Below, piece by piece: positions 17,267 through 40,845 of a stretch of 64,000 nucleotides of DNA. Numbering within the stretch: the first letter of the stretch is position 1; the number at the start of each line of letters is the position of its first letter. The stretch lies in NCBI RefSeq assembly GCF_000002985.6, contig NC_003284.9, positions 13,268,001 to 13,332,000 of the forward strand, written 5' to 3'. The notes beneath the pieces are model-generated. The model had not been told where the DNA came from, ran no database searches, and saw nothing but the letters and a program-made list of their open reading frames with translations. This DNA comes from Caenorhabditis elegans (Eukaryota; Nematoda; Chromadorea; Rhabditida; Rhabditidae). A program made the translations under genes and the position numbers.

Positions 17267-18630
17267 TCAGAACATAAGGACAAAAGGGAAGAAAATAGCT
17301 ATCATATGACGAACAATTCGCTTCCGTTCATCCACTCCATTTCCAGAATTATCCAAATTATCGTAATCGTCATCGTTTTCCACTTCATCATATGAATCAG
17401 CGTTATCGAAATTCTTTTCGTTTCCGCGTCTAGCCTTTGGGTTCCTTTGTGGCTTGGAGTCATCTTCATCGTCGAAAAAGTCATCTTCATCCTCATTGCG
17501 ACTACGACGATTGGTCATACGAGGCTTCTGCAAAAAAAGAAACATTACTATATTGAAAGGTTATATTGCTTTGTTAAACTTACACTTTCATCCTCTTCAT
17601 TATCCTCATTCTCATTGTCTGATTCATCTTCTTGAAAGTGTTCACGAGTTGAGTGAGATCTAGAGTTGTTGCTTCGACGACTTTTTTGTCGGGACTCCTT
17701 CTCCTCACGTTCCTCGTCTTCGTAGTCATTTTCCGGTTCTTCTTGGCGACCCTTTGGCGTTCCACGGCGGTAAGACTTCTTTTCTTCAGCACTATCCTCG
17801 TTGTCATCTTTCTTCCGACGGTACACAGGATCATCGCCAACCTCCGTGTCAGACTCTGCCAACTTCTTAGAATTTCTGTCAGATTTGCTATTGTAGCTTC
17901 CTGGAAGATTATTGATGGCGTCTGAAAGAGCTTTCAGATCGTTCGAAGCCAGCACATCTTCCATGGCATTCCTTCTGATTGGAGATCCTATGTAGTGAAT
18001 GGAAGGAGTAGCGAAAACTTCTTCGGGACCATCAACAGAATACTCATCATCATTCAAATTAAACAGTTGAATGCCGTCGTGGATGATGAGCGAATCAACA
18101 AAAGTTCCTTTTGAGATGAATAACAATTGCTCCTGCTCGAAGTTACTTGGAAGCTCAGAAGTCGCGAAAGTACATCGAAAGTCATTATTGCCAAGGGATT
18201 CAACTACTCCGGTGAGGTTCTGCAAATAAATTCCGAAATAATAACAGTGAAAAGATTTACAGTTATATATAGTTATACTTGATATCTAAAAAGGATATCT
18301 ACTGACCTGTTCGGTAACAAGGACAGTCCCTCCGAGCTCAGCGTGCGCACGTAGGCGTTGTCCCTGATGTGGAAGGCAGACCAAGTATTCAATGATCTCG
18401 TCTGGACGTCTATTAACTGCAAATGCTGCATAACCATTCATATCGGTAAAATTGCGAATGTAGAGGTGCAGATTGTGGTCAGTGTCAAATTGAAACAGCG
18501 AGTTGCATCCGGCGTTTGGACTGCAACCGTACGGCTCCCCGAAGCATGAGTTCTCTCTTGAACAGTCAATGCTGACAGCAGCAGAGACCATCATCGGCAG
18601 AGCCATGAGCAGGAAGCGATAAAAGGCCAT
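17267..18630 (-). CDS. Secreted DOMON-domain protein with charged tail, copy 1
   Basis: 406-aa protein from exons 18307-18630, 17584-18219 and 17267-17527 (minus), all phase 0. A signal peptide (LLMALPMMVSAA) precedes a domain opening DCSRENSCFGEPYGCSPNAGC, the cysteine pattern of FRRS1/Reeler-type DOMON domains, ending near residue 150. Residues about 195-390 are very rich in Asp, Glu, Arg and Ser, including TNRRSRNEDEDD. The last 12 residues (IAIFFPFVLMF) are hydrophobic, suggesting a GPI signal. FRRS1-type DOMON domains are thought to bind haem or sugars; ligand is not inferable here. The 5' UTR has an intron (18634-18825) ending 3 nt before the ATG. Tandem paralog at 21137-22626. Confidence 0.85.
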
Positions 18631-18882
18631 TACCTGAAAATCAGCAAAGTTTTAACTATATTACAATTTATCAAGATATATGGAAAAATATAGAAGGAAC
18701 ACACCACATTAGAAATAATAATAAACATTTTTCAATTTCGTATAATGTATATATTAATAAATTGAAACAAAAGAAAAATAAAACACCTCCACCACCACCA
18801 CGACAAGAGCGAGCACACCGCTCACCAACCTACACCAATAAAAATGGGGAGAATGACTGGAGGGCGACTGTCTGTTGCCGAC

Positions 18883-21136: not shown

Positions 21137-22626
21137 TTAAAACATGAAAACCAAAATGAGAGCAATTGCAACAAGATCACAAACAATGTGCTTCCTTTTA
21201 TCCAATCTACTTCCAGAATTGTCCAGGTCAGACCAGTCCTCATCGTTTTCCTCTGTATCAAACAACTCATCCTCATCGGAATCCTTCTTGTTTTTCCGCC
21301 CTCTCTGTGTCTTCCGTGGCTTGGACTCATCTTCATCATCGATGCGACTACGACGGTTAGTTTTACGAGGCTTCTGGAAAAAGGAAGTTATATTTCATAG
21401 ATTTCTCATAGGTTATGAAACTTACAAAACTATTGTCTTCCTCATAATCCTCATCATCCTCATAATCATCTTCCTCTCGGTTTCTATGAGCTGAGCGACC
21501 TCCATAAGGTTTTCTGCGGGGTTTGAAGTTATCTTCATCGTCGAGAATGTCATCATCATCGTTGCGACTGCGACGGTTGGTTTTACGAGTCTTCTGAAAA
21601 ATAAACATTTTTTATCAATTCCTTGCTTGTTGTTAAACTTACACTTTCCTCCTCTTCATAATCCTCATTCTCATCGTCCGATTCACCTTCCTCACGATGC
21701 TTACGAGTTGAGCGACCTCTAGCGTTGTTGCTGTGACGACGTCTTGGCCGGGACTCCATCTCCTCACGATCTTCGTCCTCGTACTCGTATTCCGGGTATT
21801 GGCGGCGGCGCGAGTGAGAATCGCGAGTTTTCGATCCAGATTGAGCCAACGTCTCTAGATCTCTGTCTGTCTTGCTCTTGGGGCTCTTGGGCAAGTTACT
21901 GATCGCTTCTGAAAGTGAGTCCTTTTCATCTGAAGTCAGCACGTCTTCCATGGAACTCCCTCCGACTTGAGAACCAATGTGATAAATCGATGGAGTCAAT
22001 GGAACTTCAGCAGAAACAATATCAAATTGAGCATCGTCCTCCAAATTGAACAGTTGAATGCCGTCGTGGACGAAGAACGATTCAACAAAAGTTCCCTTTG
22101 ACACAAAGAATAATTGCTCTTGTTGGAACTTGGTTGGGAGTTCGGAAGCCGGGAAAGTACAACGAAAGTCAGTTTTGCCAAGATATTCCACATCACCAGA
22201 GATTCTCTGAAAATAAAATTATTGGTGACACAAAATCAATAAAGAACATTCAGAGAATTGTTTCTCAAACTCGGCTGATCTGCAGTAATCTCTACTAACC
22301 TTTTCGGAAATAAGCACTCTTCCTCCGAAGTCGGCATGAGCGCGAAGAAGTTGTCGTTGGTATGGAAGAATCACAAAGTATTCAATCGTCTCGTCTGAAC
22401 TTCTGTTGACTGCAAATGCTGCGTAGCCACTCATATCGGTGAAATTGCGGATGTAGAAATGCAGATTGTGGTCAGTGTCGAAGTGGAAGAGCGAGTTGCA
22501 TCCGGCGTTTGGACTGCAACCGTACGGCTCCCCGAAGCATGAGTTCTCTCTTGAACAGTCAATGCTGACAGCAGCAGAGACCAACATCGGCAGAGCCATG
22601 AGCAGGAAGCGATGAAAGGCCATCAT
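21137..22626 (-). CDS. Secreted DOMON-domain protein with charged tail, copy 2
   Basis: 431-aa paralog of the gene at 17267-18630. Exons (minus): 22300-22626, 21643-22206, 21426-21593, 21137-21373, all phase 0. The signal peptide and first 60 residues (DCSRENSCFGEPYGCSP) are nearly identical to copy 1. This copy has one more exon: exons 3 and 4 both start AAG-CCT/ACT-CGT and encode KPRKTNRRSR/KTRKTNRRSR followed by an acidic run, so one arose by exon duplication. The tail ends in a hydrophobic segment (LVAIALILVFMF), again GPI-signal-like. Its 5' UTR intron is 22630-22822 with the same splice sequences as copy 1. Confidence 0.85.
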
Positions 22627-22879
22627 TACCTGAAAATCACATTGGAACTGTTTTATAATTTATGAAAATCTTAGAAATAATAAGGAATAAACATTGACAA
22701 CACCAAAGGAAAAATGAACAATGTGTTTCAAATTCGAATTATAAAAATAAAATTAAAAAACTTGAAAAAAATGTAGAAAATAAAAAAAAATCAAATGGTT
22801 GAAATGGAAGAATACCACTCACCAACCTGCACCAAGAAAAAGAGTGAGACTGACCGGCGAGCGGTCGTCTCTGCCAAGC

Positions 22880-23805: not shown

Positions 23806-24984
23806 ATGATTTCGGCGGAAGACTATATTTTTCTGAGTTCTATTTTTTATCCTGTATCTTCCACGCTAGCGGTGTCTGTGCAATTTTTTTTATTATACCT
23901 GATTGTCAAGCACTCCCCTAAACACTTGAATTTTCTTCGAGCCACTTTAGCTCTAACATCTGTTTTTCAAATTATTCTTATAATCGTAACGTATTTTACA
24001 CAAGTTCGGTATCAGACTACTAAAACTCCAATCGAGATTTGGACTTATGGCTACTGCAGATTTTTTGAGCCATGGATATGCAATTGCTTTTACCAAATTA
24101 TGCAGGTTAGGCTTGAACAGAAGAACATTAAAAAAAAAAAATTAAAAAAAAAATTTTTTTAACCGAAAATGTATATTTAGTTGAGCGTGTTGGCAAGTCA
24201 TCTTACAATTTACGGAACTTTTTTCCTCAAGTACAGAATGGTCACAAAACTACAGATGAGCCAAGTTGAAATTATGAAAACGTATGTTGTGTTCTATTTT
24301 CCTCTCATTTTATCCACAGTGAGTTTTGTTGAAAAATTGACATGTTAAAAAAAGATATTGTAAGATATTTGTCGTAATCATTTTCAAAACTCAAGTGTGG
24401 ACGGTACAAGCGGAAGAAGAACTCCGCGTTGTGAACATTGATGGGAACAATAGTAGAATGTATCTAATCTTTGCAATCTTGAACTACTCACACTGGCCAA
24501 ATACGTCAAATCTCGTGATTTACGGTGCATGCTTATTGGCTTCTCCCGTCATTTGCTTTTTCTACAGGAAGTGAGTTTTGTAGAAAGTATGATATTCGAA
24601 TTGTTAGATTATCTTAGGAATACTCTGAAACATATCAAAAACCAAGCTGGAAATATGTCTATTGCTTGTCAGGAACAGTACAGAAGCTTCATATTGGTAT
24701 CAGAACAGTTATTGCAGATATTTCTCATTTAATTCAAGTTTCAGGGTCTCACTATTCAATGCATTCTTCCTTGCGTTATTTTTATTCCACTAGAATTTTT
24801 GTATTACTACTGTATCATCACCAAAAACGAGCTTTTGTTTGTGGAGTTCTTTTTTCCAGTTATAGTTGAACTACCGGCCATGATTGACCCTTTTATATCA
24901 ATTTATTTTGTGACACCATACAGAAAGTTGATTATCAAATGGGTGCGAAAAAGAAAAACTCTGCATAGAACTGATACTTTCTAA
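23806..24984 (+). CDS. SRD-like seven-transmembrane chemoreceptor A
   Basis: 320-aa receptor. Exons: 23806-24105, 24181-24318, 24365-24570, 24618-24696, 24745-24984. It shows the SRD-type signatures KHSPK after TM1, YGYCRFFEPW before TM3, GLTIQC at the start of TM6 and PYRKL after TM7. Exon sizes 300/138/206/79/240 match receptors B and the pseudogene C, confirming the junctions. It is the only member of the cluster on the plus strand. A role as a sensory-neuron GPCR for small molecules is known for the class; the ligand is not inferable. Confidence 0.87.
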
Positions 24985-25414: not shown

Positions 25415-26769
25415 TTATCTCGTAAACGCATTTGTAGTTCTTGTCTCCTCTCGTTCTTTTTTCACCCATCTCATCAATTTTCTTCTGAACGGAGTTACGA
25501 AATAAATTGAAATAATCGGATCCACCAATGTTGGCAACGCTGGAATCAAAACCAGAAAAAACTCCAAGAACAAGATTTCCTCCCCAGTTAATAAGCAGTA
25601 GTAGTAAAGGGTGTAAATTGGAATGTAGAATACATAGGGAAGCACGCACTGAATGGTGAGACCCTGGAAGATAACTACAATGTATGAAAGCTGATGACAG
25701 TCTTACCATAACAAAACTTTTGTAAAGTTGTTGTCGAGGAGCCGACATGTTTTCCATTTGATGGTAGATTTGACGTAGGGTTCTTCTGCAATTTGACGAT
25801 GTTATGCTTTGTTTATTTACGTTTCCAAAACTGCGAAAATGGAAAAAATAACCATTTGTAATTTAAAACAACTGCTACTCCTTCTCCTATTTGGTAGTAC
25901 TTTGTCGGTTTACTTTTGTGATACTTAACACTTCAGTAATATTTTCATCAACCTTCCAAATCTCAGATTCTAAGAGCTCCTCATTAATCTTAAAAGACTC
26001 ACTTTCTCCAGTGAAAACTCAACACAGGAACAACAAAAATACAAAAACTTGTAATAATAAGATTGAGAGTGTTTGGCCACTTGGAAAAACTCAAAAATGC
26101 AAAAACGAGGTATTCGTCTTCATTGTTCAAAAATAAGTTCACAAGACGAAGTTGCTCTTGAGCCTCCCACGAAAAGGTTTGCGTTTTGACGATAATGATA
26201 ACAAGGATCTGAAACGAATCTCTTTAAACTTTATTAGAGATTAAATAATTATCCTACGAAAGATAGGCAAAATGGGCAGTAAAACGTGAAATATGTTTTC
26301 AGAATTTCAAACTTGCTCATTTGAACACCCTTCACCATTCTGTACTTGAGAAAGAAAGTCCCATAAATTGTAAGTCCACTTGCAAGAGCAGTCAACTGAA
26401 AATCAAAACCATTTTCTATGATACCATTTCTATGATACCATTCTATGATTCTACAATATTTCATATCTGTACCTGTTCTGCTTGATAAAAACAGTAGCAA
26501 ATCCATGGCTCAAAATGTTTGCAAAGCCCATAACTCCACATCTCAATTGGCTTTTTGGTTGTTATAAACCGAATTTGTGTGAAGAACGAAGAAAACGCGA
26601 GCACTATTTGAAAGATGCATGTCAACCCAAGAATTATTCGAAGCATATGGATGCTTTTCGGAGAATGCTTCACAATCAAGAATAGTAAAAATAATTGAGC
26701 AATCAACGTAAAGAAAAAGAAAATAGGGTAGATTCCAAACAACAGCGATCGGTACTCTGCTGCTATCAT
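25415..26769 (-). CDS. SRD-like seven-transmembrane chemoreceptor B
   Basis: 322-aa receptor. Exons (minus): 26473-26769, 26258-26395, 26003-26208, 25707-25785, 25415-25663. KHSPK, YGLCKHFEPW, SKWPNT before TM5, GLTIQC and TPFRRKL are present. Exons 2, 3 and 4 (138, 206, 79 nt) are the same length as in A, so intron positions are conserved although A is on the other strand. No lesion seen, so presumed functional. Confidence 0.87.
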
Positions 26770-27163: not shown

Positions 27164-29885
27164 TTACATTGTATTTACTCTACTTCCCACTGATTCTTTT
27201 TGAACCCATTTTGTCACCAGCTTTCGATAAGGAGTGACAAAATATATAGATATGAGAGGATCAATCATTGTAGGAAATGCAACAATTAACGAGAACGAAA
27301 ATTCGAGAAACAATATCTCCACTTTCGTGCTGATACAATAGTAATACAAAAGCTCAATAGGAATATACATCACACAAGGAAGTATACATATTAGGTTGAG
27401 CAAAAAGTCTTTGCAAAATTTTGATTTTTTTTTTGGAAGTAGTATTTTTTCAAAGCGAACAAGATTCAATGGGTAATATATTTACCATTAATGCTTATGA
27501 CTTCTTGCCAACACAATGGAAGTTGAACAGTACCCTCCGCCTAGAACTCCTGCGATTATGAGGCAAAGAAGTCGTCCAACCCAGTTTCGACGACCTTTCG
27601 ATCATGAAACTTCTGCCCGGCAAGGTGATTTTGGAGAGGGCGGAACATATAGTAGTCAGTAGGAGACAAGTCCGTTGAATACGGTGGGTGAGACGAAAAT
27701 TGGATTCTGAGGGTCTGGAGCTTCTGGCGGGTCTTCAAAGTTGTATGCGGTCTTGCGTGGTCATGGAGCAGCAACAACTTTGATCCTCTAGGGCGATGTA
27801 ATCGATGAGCATGGACCACCTTTTTCAATTAAATGCAGTATAGGCCAGCGTTGATTGTAGCAAAGTTTGGAAGAAGCTCTCTGGAAATGACACCCTTACT
27901 GTCCCACCGAATTGAGAGAAGCACTTTTTTCCTTGAAGTTCTCACTTGATGCCAGGTTTCGCGGTTTCCTCGACCGGGACCCACTCTTTTTTCCTGGTAT
28001 GGCTAACATATAATACCCATTTATCATCTCCAGTAATGATATCCTTAATCCAGTCCGTCGTTCGTTTCCTAGTGAACAGCGAAAGAGAGAGGTCACAAAG
28101 CAATTTTTCTGAGAATCGGACAATTTGTGAGGAACAAGTTGACCGAACTTTGGCACCCTTCCGGTTCTATGGAGATGCTTGATGATGGTTCTTTGGAGAT
28201 GCTTGAGAGTCGCAGAAAGTTTGCGTGACGTTGCTCTTGAATCATCTTCCAGGGCTCTCGAAATATCCTCATCGATATCCGAACGAGAGCGATCTGATCT
28301 TGGTTTATCATCGAGATCGTAGTTCTTTTTCGTGAACTTTTCGAACCAAAACTTCATGGTGTTGTAGGTGACAGAGTTATTGCCTAACACTGCACACATG
28401 TTACGACGAGCTTCGTTGCAATTGCAGCCTTGGAGGAACTCGTACAGAAAAACTCCTAGGAGGACGTGGCGTTCGGCGAGCAAATTCTCGGTCATTTTGA
28501 ACAGCACCCAAAAGTTTTTTCAAATGCATTAAACATGCACATTACGTACTATACAAATAAAAAAACAGAATCAGAAAAAAATGAATTAACGCTGAGAAAT
28601 GAAGAAAAGTACAAATTTTGCAAAGACTTTTTGCTCAACCTAATAGAATAGTGAGATCCTGAACAGAAGTTGAATAAATCTACATATACCAAAAAAAAAG
28701 TTACCATGATAAAACTTTTATGTTGATATTGTCGTGCAAGTGAAATACTTGCGATGTGACCATTAATATGATCTAGCGTTTTTCTGAAAAGCCTAAGAGG
28801 TTTTTCATTCCAATTATTAAATTGAAGAGTAGAGGATGTGGGTAAATTACGGAAGTGTGTAGTACACACCTGAGCATTTACTATGGCATTAAAAGAAAAC
28901 GGCAAAATTCTGTTCGCAGTATAAAAAATGCCTATTTAAAAAATTCCCGGTTGCTCTAGAATGTTCTTTCTGCTTGAACAATTAGTTTTGGGTGAATTTT
29001 TTTGAGATTTATCTAAATTTTTTGATTGAGAATGTTTCGACAAAGCTTTGAAACTGAAAAAAAAAACTGGCCATGATTGGTCTATAAACTTGCTTGAATG
29101 TTGAACACTTGTTGAAATATGGCGTTTGTCTTGACCCAACTTACTTTCGACAGTAATAACAAACAGCCGGAGCAGCAAACATGCAAAACGCGAGAATAAA
29201 CAAATTGCAAGAATTAAGCCAATTTGAGAAACTTAAAAACGAAAAAATAAGATAATCCGCGTTAATAATTCTCAATGAATTCACAAAATTTAGTTTATCT
29301 TCATACTCGGAGTTAAACGTTTGGGTTTCAATAATACTCACGACAATGATCTGTAATTTATCAAGTTGTATTCAATTTTAGAGAGATTTCACACTTACCG
29401 AGGACAATATAAGTGGGAAGTAAAATACAATATATGTGCTGAATATTACTGTTTTATTCATTGACTTTGATTTTACTATCATGTATTTAATAAAAAATGT
29501 TCCGTATATTGTAAGGTTACTAGCTAGAAGACACAGCTGAAACCCTTTTTTTAAAAATCAACTAGATCAATAATAGTCTTTTTACCTGAACAATTTGGTG
29601 GTAAGTATAGCATAGCCAAGGCTCAAAATACCGACAATATCCATACGTCCACATTTCCATAGGGTTCTTTGTTGTAACAAACCGTATTTTTAGAAAACAC
29701 GCCAAAACAATAATAATTAATTGAGACACAGATGTGAGTGCTAATGTGACACGAAGAAAACTCATATTTTTGGGAGAGTGCTTCACAATTAAATACATCA
29801 AAAATAGTTGAAATACGATAGAGAAAATTGAAAACGTTGGTTAAAGCACTGAAAGCAGCGAACGGTACTCGTCGGCTTGAAGCAT
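27164..29885 (-). pseudogene. SRD-like chemoreceptor C, broken by a stop and a mariner insertion
   Basis: All five exons of an A/B-type receptor remain: 29586-29885, 29399-29536, 29145-29350, 28705-28783, and a last exon split into 28646-28658 plus 27164-27390. Two lesions are visible. Codon 15 of exon 1 is TAA (plus 29841-29843) where A and B have the tyrosine of a YP pair. A mariner element (27391-28643) interrupts the last exon at a TA inside a leucine codon; the frame resumes exactly beyond it (LPCVMYIPIELLYYYC). Exons 2, 3 and 4 keep open frames, the 138/206/79 lengths and normal splice sites, so decay is recent. Start at a later in-frame ATG would lose TM1. Confidence 0.88.
27391..28643 (-). 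mobile_element. Mariner-family DNA transposon, degenerate transposase
   Basis: 1253-bp element with perfect 31-bp terminal inverted repeats (27391-27421 and 28613-28643, beginning TTAGGTTGAGC) flanked by the TA duplication (27389-27390, 28644-28645). The minus strand encodes a mariner transposase: an N-terminal helix-turn-helix region with DDKPRSDR (from 28507) and VPHKLSDSQKN, then HDHARPHT and YSTDLSPTDYYMF of the DDD catalytic domain (27556-27828). The frame is broken by shifts and a stop between the two halves, so the copy is non-autonomous, yet its ends are perfect and could be mobilised by an active relative. Confidence 0.93.
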
Positions 29886-30993: not shown

Positions 30994-32523
30994 TCATATT
31001 CTGGATCGTGTAATGCCTGAAGACACCGAAATCGTGGTTCCAACTGAATTGTCTCGTTTCCCAAGACATGACAACAATTTCTTGCGATACGGAATCACAA
31101 AATAAAGCGTGACAATTGGTTCGATGAACACTGGAAGTGCGGATGCCAAGTAGATGAAGTACTGTTGAAAGAGGATTTCGGTTTCTTGAAATATAAATTA
31201 TCTTTTTTACAAATAACATATATTGTCTTACTAGTAGTGACGCAATAAAAATACATGCAGTACATCGGGAAGTAAGTGAAAGTTGGAATTGCAGATTGAA
31301 TAGTAAGACCCTGCAAATGTGAAGATAGTGTCGATAAAAAGGAATAATAAAAACTACCAGAACAAATGATTTGTGTTGAGTTTTGGTTCTGGATGATGCG
31401 TCCAGGTGTTTGTTGAGAAGATTCAAAATTCTTCTGTAAGCGTCAATACTCTAGATTGTGCTATTTTTCTGAAAACTTACGCTCTGATTCCAAAACAAAT
31501 AAATGGAGAAAGTACGACACCACCGACAACAAGAGCAAATTGCATTAGACTGACCGTCTGAAGTTTCATTAGACCAACGATGGAATACTCCGTGGCGTTT
31601 GCATTTTTGAGTGCTAGTTCCTCTTGAATCTCTTGAGGGTATGCGACGGTAAGAATTAGATATATTACAAAGCCCTGGAAGTAAGATACTTTACTTTTTT
31701 TAGAAAATTTACTACCAGATCCACCAGGAGAAGAAACAAACTCAATTGTTTCTGCATTTTACAGAATAACGCCAAAATAACAACTTTCATGACAAAATGC
31801 TCATAATTTTAAAAAAAATGTTACCTTATTTTAGCTAGAATCTCCAATTGTTTAAACTTTCCGTTTCCTACCGGCCGAAAATATTATTTTTTTCAAATGA
31901 TTGTCTAACTTTTCTGCCCACTGTCTCACAAATTCGTAGTTTGGTACATTCAAATGAGCTATGTAATTAAATTCCTCCTATCAGCTTTGAATATACCCAA
32001 ACCAGTGAAAAAAAGTGAGGTACATTACGTTACAAAGTTAGTAAAATGGAGATTTTGGAAATTATGCATGTACAATTCTTACACTTACTGTTGAAAGAAA
32101 AAATGGAATGTGAAATGCCAAGAATGTCAGTATCATTGTTATGCTCGAAACCTTCGTCCAACGTAATGTCATCAATTTAAAGTATAGCGTGACAATCAAT
32201 GATATACCACTCAACAATATAGTCAGTTGAAATATTTGATGGCACGTGTACATAGTCAACGTACTAAGAATTCGAAGAGGTCCATAACTTCGAACCTCCA
32301 CCGGAACATTTGAGGACACCTGCCGAAATTGGAACAACACAACGAGACAAAGACAAGCAATGTTGCAGACACTTGTGTGTGCTATGATGAATCGAAAGAT
32401 TCCCATTTTTGCAGAGTGGAAGATAATGAACAAAAGCCAAATGGTTTGTAGAATAACGGAAGTGCAGAAAAAAACCGGATTGAACAAACTCAAAAAACTG
32501 AGATAGTCTTCATTCGTCAACAT
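30994..32523 (-). CDS. SRD-like seven-transmembrane chemoreceptor D
   Basis: 324-aa receptor. Exons (minus): 32089-32523, 31481-31674, 31358-31433, 31232-31310, 30994-31184. Exon 1 (435 nt) covers what are two exons in the other family members, so intron 1 is missing. Motifs: FHSAKM in place of HSPK, RSYGPLRIL, GLTIQS, and IPYRKKLLSCLGK after TM7. It is the most divergent receptor in the cluster but its 3' intron positions (76/79/~190-nt exons) match E and F. An acceptor 7 nt before the ATG suggests trans-splicing. Confidence 0.8.
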
Positions 32524-32529
32524 TTCGCG

Positions 32530-33595
32530 ACTGAAAATGTAGCTTTGTGAATAGGCAGACCGTTGGGATTGAGTCTCATAAAAATTTGGGTTATTGTGCT
32601 CACATTGCTCTCTCCACACATGATACTTGTTCTGAGTGGGCTGATTGCGTGTGGTATCAGCAAAAAAAATATCATAACAAAAGTGTTAGTTGGAAAGTGC
32701 GTGACTTTGTCCAGTTATCATCCAGTTCAACCAAAAAAAAAGAACATCTAAAAATCTGGTTCCGGGTCTTTGCACAATATGATCTTCAATCAAAATTATA
32801 AAATTTCAGAATGGGGAAATTGAAACATATCAACAATAAAGATAATAGATGTTTGGTGAAGCTGGCGATTATTGAGACGGAAATAATAAAAAAATAGATT
32901 TTTGTGAGAATCTCACTTTATTTCAGTGTGAAGAGGAATGACGTTCCCAGGTTTGAAAACGTCAAAAAACACGTTTAAAAAATAATAAAATTTGGTGGTC
33001 AATCTACTGATATATGCTGAAGTCAATAAACACACAAAATTTTAGAAATACGCAAAACATATGATTTGCTTTAAAACTCAATTCGGTTGTTTTGGTTATT
33101 TTGAATTAAAAAGAAGAGTACTTAAAAATTTACGCAATGTTTGTTGTGTTATTTTTTTATAGAATAAACTCTTGAAAAAAAACAAATTAAAGAATTTCAT
33201 GTGTTCAGTTTACTCTCTCTAAGCAGTTCATTATCAGTTTTTTATTTTTTAAAAATAAAGTCGTTGAAACCGACGTTTCTAAAAATTAATCTCTCGCAAA
33301 TAAAAACTTGAGAAAGAAAGACCCACATTCAACTAAAATATCACTTTTTGCCGGCCTATTTGTGTAGCATAAAGAATCCAGAAAACAATAATGAAAAATA
33401 TAAATTGGGAGAGTCAGATTTAAAAACCAAAATTTGTGGACACAGGAGAGATCGGTAAAATTGCTGACAACTAAGTAACAAAGATTTAATGAAGCCTCTA
33501 AACATAATACAACAACGGAATTCCAGAAGTTGGTTTATAATTTAAATCGATTTATTAAAAATTAAAACAATTATTCTCAATTGATAGTGACTAGT
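32530..33595. other. Intergenic DNA, nothing recognised
   Basis: AT-rich spacer between receptors D and E. Two short plus-strand frames (32547-32801, 32563-32751) overlap the D promoter and look like chance. Confidence 0.6.
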
Positions 33596-39281: not shown

Positions 39282-40845
39282 TCAGCGACGTTGAGCAACT
39301 GTGAAGACTGTTGCATTTTGAGCCGTGCTGTCATTATTATTTTTCAGATTCAAAAACCGACGAATCATCCTTCGGGTACTTGGTGTTTCTAGATAGTAGA
39401 TGAAAAAATTCATCATCGGAATCGACTCCAAGCGGAAGTAAAAGTATCCTTCTCTCACAACTTCAGGTAAACTAGCGAAAACAGTCTAAAAATAATGTAC
39501 CGTTGCAGCATATTAAAACATATGTTAGACTAGACTTCTTACCGGAAAACATTTTGTGATAAACGCTCCAAGTTCATAAATAGACAAATAAACAGCAATT
39601 GCCACTGTTTGCCTCATCATGATCAGGTCTCTGCGAGCTTGAATTTTCGACAAGTTGCTCTGTTCTGCAGCCTTGACAGTTGGAACGGCGCTGATGTGAT
39701 GATCTTAATTTAATTAGGTAGAAAATTTTTTTTAAACAAAACTTTCACTTACTTTTGGTAAAGAACTTTTTAAATTTTACGTATGTGTCATTCCGTGCGA
39801 AACGCAGATGCAAGATAATAGCCAAGTTGACAAACATACATGTAAATGGAAGTAGAATAGCATATTGGTTTTGGAAAACTGTGATCTGCAATCTTAGGAA
39901 GTTTCTCCTTTTTTCATGAGAACTGCTTTCTCTCAAAAGCAAACACTGGCGCTATTCATTGTTCTCTTCCCCCAAAAAGAGAAGCAAGTGTCTAATCGTT
40001 TCTCTTTTCGGAAGGAAAAGCTTTCCCATGGCCGAATGGTCTAGTGGTATGATTCTCGCTTTGGGTGCGAGAGGTCCCGGGTTCAATCCCCGGTTCGGCC
40101 CATTCTTTTGGCATATTCAAACGCGACACGCACTTGGCACGTTGAATTGAAATTTAATGTAACATTTTTTAAGGCAGTAAACATTTGATCTCCTTTGACG
40201 GAATTCGAACAAAAATGATTACAATGCTCAGATTTTGACTAACCGGATGTCGTTCTGGGTCACACGCAGATATAAATGACAAATGATTCAACATGAAAAT
40301 AATACGACACGGTGTAAAGTATGGAATAAGTAATGATATGAGCACTACAATTGCAATAACGGCAGCATATCCGAAAAGTCGTCGTTGTGTGAACATCTCA
40401 GAGAATGGGTTGAGTATAATAGCCAATCGATTGACTGTCATTAGCACAGAAATGCAAAGAGAATGGAAATACGAAAATGTGGCTCCAAGACTAAATTGAG
40501 CACCAAATGCTGTCAGATAGTCTAGAAACGTCAAATGTTCGAATATGTTTTCAGAACTCTCCACAGGCAACTCACTTTCATATTCTTCCTCAGTAAGGAA
40601 GGCAAAAGCAGCTACATTAACATTAAGGAAAACTGTAATTAGAATTCCGGGAATGCTCATTAAAACAATATAGGCCAGTGGGAGTGCAGCTTAAAAATTA
40701 ATTGAATGTAATTGACTCCTAAAATTCAAAAACTACCGTTCCGACGATTTATTATTGTTGCTGTGAGGAGCACAATGTTGTAAAGCATGCACATTGTTTG
40801 AAGTATTATCATAAAAATTAAAAACAGTTGATACTTCGGTGTCAT
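39282..40845 (-). CDS. Seven-transmembrane chemoreceptor, Srg-superfamily-like
   Basis: 347-aa multipass protein. Exons (minus): 40737-40845, 40244-40689, 39749-39885, 39543-39690, 39282-39485; phases join. The N-terminus is TM1 ([20 protein letters not shown]); exon 2 carries TM2-TM5 including [13 protein letters not shown], whose NR after a hydrophobic helix resembles the Srg/Srv/Srxa group rather than SRD. The C-terminus ends [20 protein letters not shown], a usual TM7 exit. A basic Ser/Asn tail follows. A tRNA-Pro gene lies in intron 2 on the other strand. The exact family is uncertain; unlike SRD genes it lacks HSPK and the PYRK motif. Confidence 0.78.
40030..40101 (+). tRNA. tRNA-Pro (TGG)
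   Basis: 72-nt cloverleaf: acceptor GGCCGAA/TTCGGCC, anticodon loop TTTGGGT giving TGG, T-arm CCGGGTTCAATCCCCGG, discriminator C. It lies antisense within intron 2 of the receptor gene at 39282-40845. Confidence 0.95.

What the first reader, a model, noticed from the sequence alone, without database searches (positions are those of the whole stretch)
27164..29885. Chemoreceptor pseudogene with two independent lesions
A TAA at codon 15 (29841-29843) and a mariner inserted in the last exon at a TA inside a codon, while all introns and the other exons remain intact. The undamaged exon structure suggests very recent loss, so alleles lacking one or both lesions may still segregate in wild populations.
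Basis: seen in the sequence. Interest (0 to 1): 0.7.

Follow-up and report, generated by a model that had tools for sequence, protein, structure and literature searches.

The report
Worm chemoreceptor pseudogene with two lesions

Summary
On the minus strand lies a five-exon Srd chemoreceptor gene (Pfam PF10317) whose exon lengths (300/138/206/79/240) equal those of its intact neighbour at 23806-24984. Codon 15 is TAA (29843-29841). A 1,253-bp mariner (28643-27391, TA on both sides) splits codon 246; the frame then runs two codons into the element and stops. All eight splice sites look normal.

"Very recent loss" is only partly supported. Loss was late in the gene's history: no other nonsense codon, no frameshift, and a branch about as long as its intact sister's. 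But the mariner has 7 private substitutions in 1,252 sites (terminal branch 0.9%). That caps its age at about 3-5 million generations by point estimate, some 4-15 times the typical depth among strains. Being a cap, it makes a fixed insertion likelier but does not prove it.

One new point: the TA used by the mariner exists only because a glutamine codon, invariant in 19 of 19 distinct relatives read there, had already become CTA. Otherwise this is an ordinary member of a well-described class (about 1,300 genes and 400 pseudogenes, PMC2576165).

The parts
29586..29885 (-). exon 1 of the Srd pseudogene (300 nt), ATG at 29885-29883
   Evidence: Pfam Srd E 2e-28
29841..29843 (-). TAA at codon 15
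   Evidence: alignment column Tyr/Asn/Asp/Trp in 13 relatives
29399..29536 (-). exon 2 (138 nt)
29145..29350 (-). exon 3 (206 nt)
   Evidence: Pfam Srd E 2.4e-5
28784..29144 (-). intron 3, 361 nt (47 in neighbour A, 217 in neighbour B), splice sites normal
28705..28783 (-). exon 4 (79 nt)
   Evidence: with the mariner in place, chose a cryptic donor at 28716 instead
28644..28658 (-). last exon, part before the mariner, ending in codon 246 CTA whose TA is the target site
27391..28643 (-). mariner-type DNA transposon, 1,253 bp, longest open frame 207 codons
27389..27390 (-). second copy of the duplicated TA
27164..27388 (-). last exon, part after the mariner, with the gene's own stop at 27166-27164
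23806..24984 (+). neighbour A: open Srd gene, sister of the pseudogene, same exon lengths
25421..26769 (-). neighbour B: open Srd gene, next closest

Best explanation
This is the reference-strain allele of an old Srd chemoreceptor gene that has lost its function. Shown: five in-frame exons with normal splice sites, a TAA at codon 15, and a mariner in codon 246 after which the frame runs two codons and stops. A protein from the normal start would be 14 residues long; one restarted at the next in-frame ATG (codon 30) would lack most of the first membrane helix and everything after residue 248. Inferred order: the gene was under constraint for most of its history; then an invariant glutamine codon became CTA, which made the TA; later the mariner used that TA. 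The TAA arose at an undetermined point; I lean (about 60%) to before the insertion, because constraint seems to have been gone already. The insertion is probably old enough to be shared by most strains of the species.
For: Gene model and lesions. Family. Open relatives; tree with T+A at 99/96 and T+A+B at 96/98. Motif G-x-x-x-Q: the last-exon search gave 25 places; 1 is this gene and 4 repeat another place's peptide, leaving 20; 2 did not resolve at the motif; 18 of the other 18 have G and Q, and one further gene makes 19 of 19. This gene has D and L. CAA and CAG contain no TA, while 35 of 35 fetched copies that keep both ends lie between TA dinucleotides. Mariner: 7 private substitutions of 1,252 sites, no private indel, terminal branch 0.0092, grouped with L029 and L064 at support 1.0.
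Against: No transcript, wild-isolate or sister-species sequence was available. The excess of changes at invariant sites is weak and post hoc (3 of 11 against 9 of 141 pooled over 12 other genes of the X chromosome, one-sided p 0.03-0.04; the distant chromosome II gene, 5 of 16, was left out of the pool; several gene models are rough; at looser thresholds T does not stand out). The Gln-to-Leu change could have been tolerated in a working receptor. The TAA is also compatible with coming after the insertion: 0.25-0.41 stops expected by the mariner clock, probability 22-33% of at least one. With the laboratory indel ratio, the lack of indels in the exons fits a shorter neutral time (best 0.3%, range 0.02-1.3%) than the mariner clock.
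Confidence: 0.88

Rival explanations
1. Segregating loss: one or both lesions are young and intact alleles still exist in wild strains.
For: Exons and splice sites are otherwise sound; likely functional alleles are reported in wild isolates for several srh and str loci that are defective in N2 (PMC2576165, passages); sensory genes are enriched in hyper-divergent regions (PMC9306471, passages). The mariner's private changes only cap its age.
Against: Two lesions, not one; mariner divergence 0.22-1.15% against 0.06-0.155% per-lineage depth in the species; a missense change at an invariant residue already preceded the insertion.
Confidence: 0.2
2. A shortened or altered product is still made: restart at codon 30, and the mariner spliced out like an intron, as recalled (from no call) for Tc1 insertions in this worm.
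For: Strong cryptic sites exist in the element (donor 28550, score 6.6; acceptor 27549, score 7.7). One in-frame pair was chosen by the alignment program (donor 28716, acceptor 27408).
Against: Among the pairs examined with a donor in the last exon or the element's first part, the eight best in-frame ones all keep 2-5 stops; the pair chosen uses weak sites (3.2 and -0.3) and removes the conserved motif; the TAA remains in every case.
Confidence: 0.03
3. The mariner was the first disabling lesion and the TAA is a later neutral hit.
For: By the mariner clock the chance of at least one nonsense change since insertion is 22-33%, higher if neutral time is longer.
Against: The Gln-to-Leu change that made the target TA came before the insertion, so constraint had probably weakened already.
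Confidence: 0.35

Closest known systems
C. elegans srd chemoreceptor family (Pfam PF10317, Str superfamily)
   Same: Pfam match in exons 1, 3 and the last; five-exon structure equal to neighbour A; PYR at the end of the last helix; one of six Srd genes in the window
   Different: Carries a nonsense codon and a transposon; departs at three residues invariant among the 13 relatives aligned
Multi-defect chemoreceptor pseudogenes of the N2 reference (Thomas and Robertson 2008, PMC2576165, passages)
   Same: More than one obvious defect; the paper presumes such loci to be fixed pseudogenes
   Different: One of the defects is a full-length mariner; the passages seen name stops, frameshifts, deletions and splice defects, and the word mariner does not occur in the main text
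Single-defect 'flatliner' alleles (same paper, citing Stewart et al. 2005, which was not held)
   Same: Nearly intact gene in the reference strain
   Different: Two lesions here, so the defining feature is not met
Mariner elements with a Mos1-type HTH_48 domain
   Same: TTAGG ends, inverted repeats, TA duplication, about 1.25 kb, 39 other copies listed in this genome (a lower bound)
   Different: This copy's transposase frame is broken (longest open run 207 codons)

Membership tests
Srd chemoreceptor | Match to Pfam PF10317 above the curated cut-off | tested here: met
   exon 1 99.9 bits, exon 3 24.1, last exon 66.6; cut-off 22.8
[quoted passage not shown]
   VTPYRKL in the last exon
Srd chemoreceptor | Continuous seven-helix reading frame | tested here: not met
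   TAA at codon 15 and mariner at codon 246; a member by descent, not a working receptor
Single-defect flatliner allele | A single apparent defect in the reference genome | tested here: not met
   two defects
Multi-defect fixed pseudogene | More than one obvious defect | tested here: met
Multi-defect fixed pseudogene | Fixed in the species | not testable with these tools
   no strain sequences held; the mariner's divergence makes it likelier
Mariner transposon | Terminal inverted repeats and TA target duplication | tested here: met
   44-nt arms incl. TA, 91%; TA on both sides, as in 35 of 35 other copies that keep both ends
Mariner transposon | Transposase HTH domain | tested here: met
   PF17906 HTH_48 E 2.5e-14
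Mariner transposon | Catalytic D,D34D motif (recalled) | not tested
   frame broken; not reconstructed

The most novel reading that the evidence does not exclude
The reference allele is an old null haplotype that has persisted beside intact alleles, so that this Srd receptor is a long-lived presence/absence polymorphism kept by balancing selection, with the mariner and the TAA marking the null lineage.
Probability: 0.07. Interest if true: 0.5.

Novelty: new member of a known kind. Interest (0 to 1): 0.2.

Why it matters
It is one worked case of how a chemoreceptor gene dies. The transposon's target site was created by an earlier missense change at an invariant residue, so the order of two of the events can be read from a single genome. 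It also shows that undamaged exons and introns are weak evidence for a loss recent enough to segregate: at neutral distances of 0.56-0.92% fewer than one stop codon, and 0.3-2.8 indels depending on the indel ratio used, are expected in a gene of this size.

Tried and rejected
dN/dS of the pseudogene branch: synonymous differences between T, A and B are saturated (pS 0.76-0.80), so no branch ratio was computed; branch lengths of a protein tree were used instead. Rescue by splicing was tested and found unlikely. Relatives outside this genome: one scan of the bacterial and archaeal contigs gave 109 pattern matches and no confirmed relative, as expected; no nematode collection is on hand. The gene's own name was sought with guessed names and R04D3 and in two papers and not found; R04D3.6.8.10 and .12 stand in a GPCR list in PMC10670001 (one passage). 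The first motif reading missed most minus-strand loci and was redone on both strands; the gene models of L018 and L020 failed, probably for the same reason, and were not used. With a D-derived query the models of D and E appear to put exon 4 in the wrong place; the A/B-query models were used, in which E shows one stop in a poorly aligned stretch and L015 one, both left unresolved and masked. Paper searches with no hit or no useful hit. PMC5850821, PMC12239620, PMC8733454 and PMC5749674 were seen as passages only.

Full report
What is there. The window is G000:C6:13268001-13332000 of a genome of 100,286,401 bases in seven contigs. I recognise these sizes, from memory, as the C. elegans reference with C6 as the X chromosome. 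Three frames matching cytochrome P450 agree with the K09A11/R04D3 region, since R04D3.1 is CYP-14A4 in PMC8945457 (one passage). The locus (T below) lies on the minus strand among six Srd genes of the window: A 23806-24984 (+), B 26769-25421 (-), T, C near 32.5 kb, D near 35.4 kb and E near 37.8 kb.

Gene model. Exons are 29885-29586, 29536-29399, 29350-29145, 28783-28705, and 28658-28644 plus 27388-27164; lengths 300, 138, 206, 79 and 240 (the last without the mariner, the duplicated TA counted once), 963 in all, the same as A. Pfam finds Srd in exon 1 (E 2e-28), exon 3 (2.4e-5) and the last exon (2.7e-18). T's donors score 5.8-9.6 and acceptors 2.8-7.9 on a matrix from 42 introns of nine relatives, whose minima are 0.4 and 1.0. 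A spliced alignment with A as query, free to use frameshifts, uses none.

Lesions. Codon 15 is TAA. Relatives have Tyr (8), Asn (3), Asp (1) or Trp (1) in that column. The mariner occupies 28643-27391 (1,253 bp) with TA on both sides. Reading on from the left gives DLTILLG and then a stop. No other nonsense codon is in the frame.

Further damage. Among 13 other Srd genes aligned with T, 11 columns are invariant; T departs at 3: Q66K, G242D and codon 246, which is masked in that alignment and reads CTA (Leu) from the left flank. Twelve other genes of the same chromosome depart at 9 of 141 such sites in leave-one-out counts (one-sided Fisher p 0.044, binomial p 0.029). The distant chromosome II gene (5 of 16) was left out of that pool. 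The test is post hoc, rests partly on rough gene models, and is weak. At looser thresholds T does not stand out: 3 of 25 and 6 of 43, against for example 4 of 28 and 6 of 45 for B. The motif G-x-x-x-Q at the start of the last exon was read in the 25 places that one search returned: one is T, four repeat another place's peptide, two did not resolve at the motif, and 18 of the remaining 18 have G and Q. One more gene makes 19 of 19.

Order of events. Mariners insert at TA. I fetched 37 of the 39 other copies that one search lists (it scored 40 of 61 candidates, T included). Of the 37, 35 keep both ends, and 35 of 35 have TA on both sides; the other two are cut short at one end. CAA and CAG have no TA. 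The TA in codon 246 therefore exists because an A had become T, and this change at an invariant residue came before the insertion. That the gene was already released from constraint then is an inference. The place of the TAA in the order is open: since the insertion 0.25-0.41 nonsense changes would be expected by neutral change in 951 coding bases, probability 22-33% of at least one.

Age. T's mariner has 7 private substitutions in 1,252 sites (95% interval 2.8-14.4), no private indel, and a terminal branch of 0.0092; it groups with L029 and L064 (support 1.0). Private changes may include some inherited from an unsampled source, so this caps the age. A knock-down rate of 4.22e-8, stated to be about 23 times wild type, gives about 1.8e-9 per site per generation (PMC8727991, passages), hence about 3.1 million generations (1.2-6.3), or 5.0 million from the branch length. 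Nucleotide diversity of 0.0012 outside and 0.0031 within Hawaii (PMC9306471, passages) implies 0.33 and 0.84 million generations per lineage. Results that pull the other way: with 0.32 indels per SNP as in laboratory lines, one stop and no indel in the exons favour a neutral distance of 0.3% (0.02-1.3%), while the ratio of 0.05 seen among the mariner copies gives 1.1% (0.07-4.8%). All agree that loss was late in the gene's history: T's branch is 0.44 against 0.40 for A, and synonymous sites between T, A and B are saturated.

Could it still work? A restart at codon 30 would lose most of helix 1. Of the in-frame donor-acceptor pairs examined with a donor in the last exon or the first part of the element, the eight best all keep 2-5 stops. 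The pair chosen (28716 to 27408) has no further stop but uses weak sites (3.2 and -0.3) and removes the conserved motif.

What is known. [quoted passage not shown] T falls in the multi-defect class. Whether T is in their supplementary list or named in WormBase could not be checked; I think it very probably is. Laricchia et al. 2017 (PMC5850821, passages) report MARINER2 among the families with the most insertions and active reference sites; I did not establish which named family this element belongs to.

Verdict. Observation confirmed; interpretation partly supported. The locus is an ordinary decayed chemoreceptor with a readable order of two events, and its mariner lesion is probably, though not provably here, too old to be segregating widely.

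Noticed in passing
G000:C6:1946191-1947353 and 1954342-1955504: Two mariner copies 8,151 bp apart with the same match scores and the same gap relative to the window copy, which suggests a duplicated chromosome segment that carried the element along.
   Followed up: no
mariner copies L029-L064, L068 and the window copy: None of 38 copies has an open run of 330 codons or more and 1 of 38 has 250-329, yet L037 and L042 have no private substitution: recent movement without an intact transposase among the copies fetched.
   Followed up: partly
window 28784-29144: Intron 3 of the pseudogene is 361 nt, against 47 in neighbour A and 217 in neighbour B.
   Followed up: no
window 32062-32685: Srd gene C has the homologues of exons 1 and 2 in one open frame without the intron, unlike A, B and T.
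   Followed up: partly
window 40169-40690 (-): An exon-sized frame matching the srxa chemoreceptor family (E 3.3e-28), a different receptor family next to the Srd cluster.
   Followed up: no
window 17548-18651 and 21583-22659 (-): Two similar predicted proteins with acidic, repetitive tails, a tandem pair; three of their four frames were scanned and have no Pfam match.
   Followed up: no
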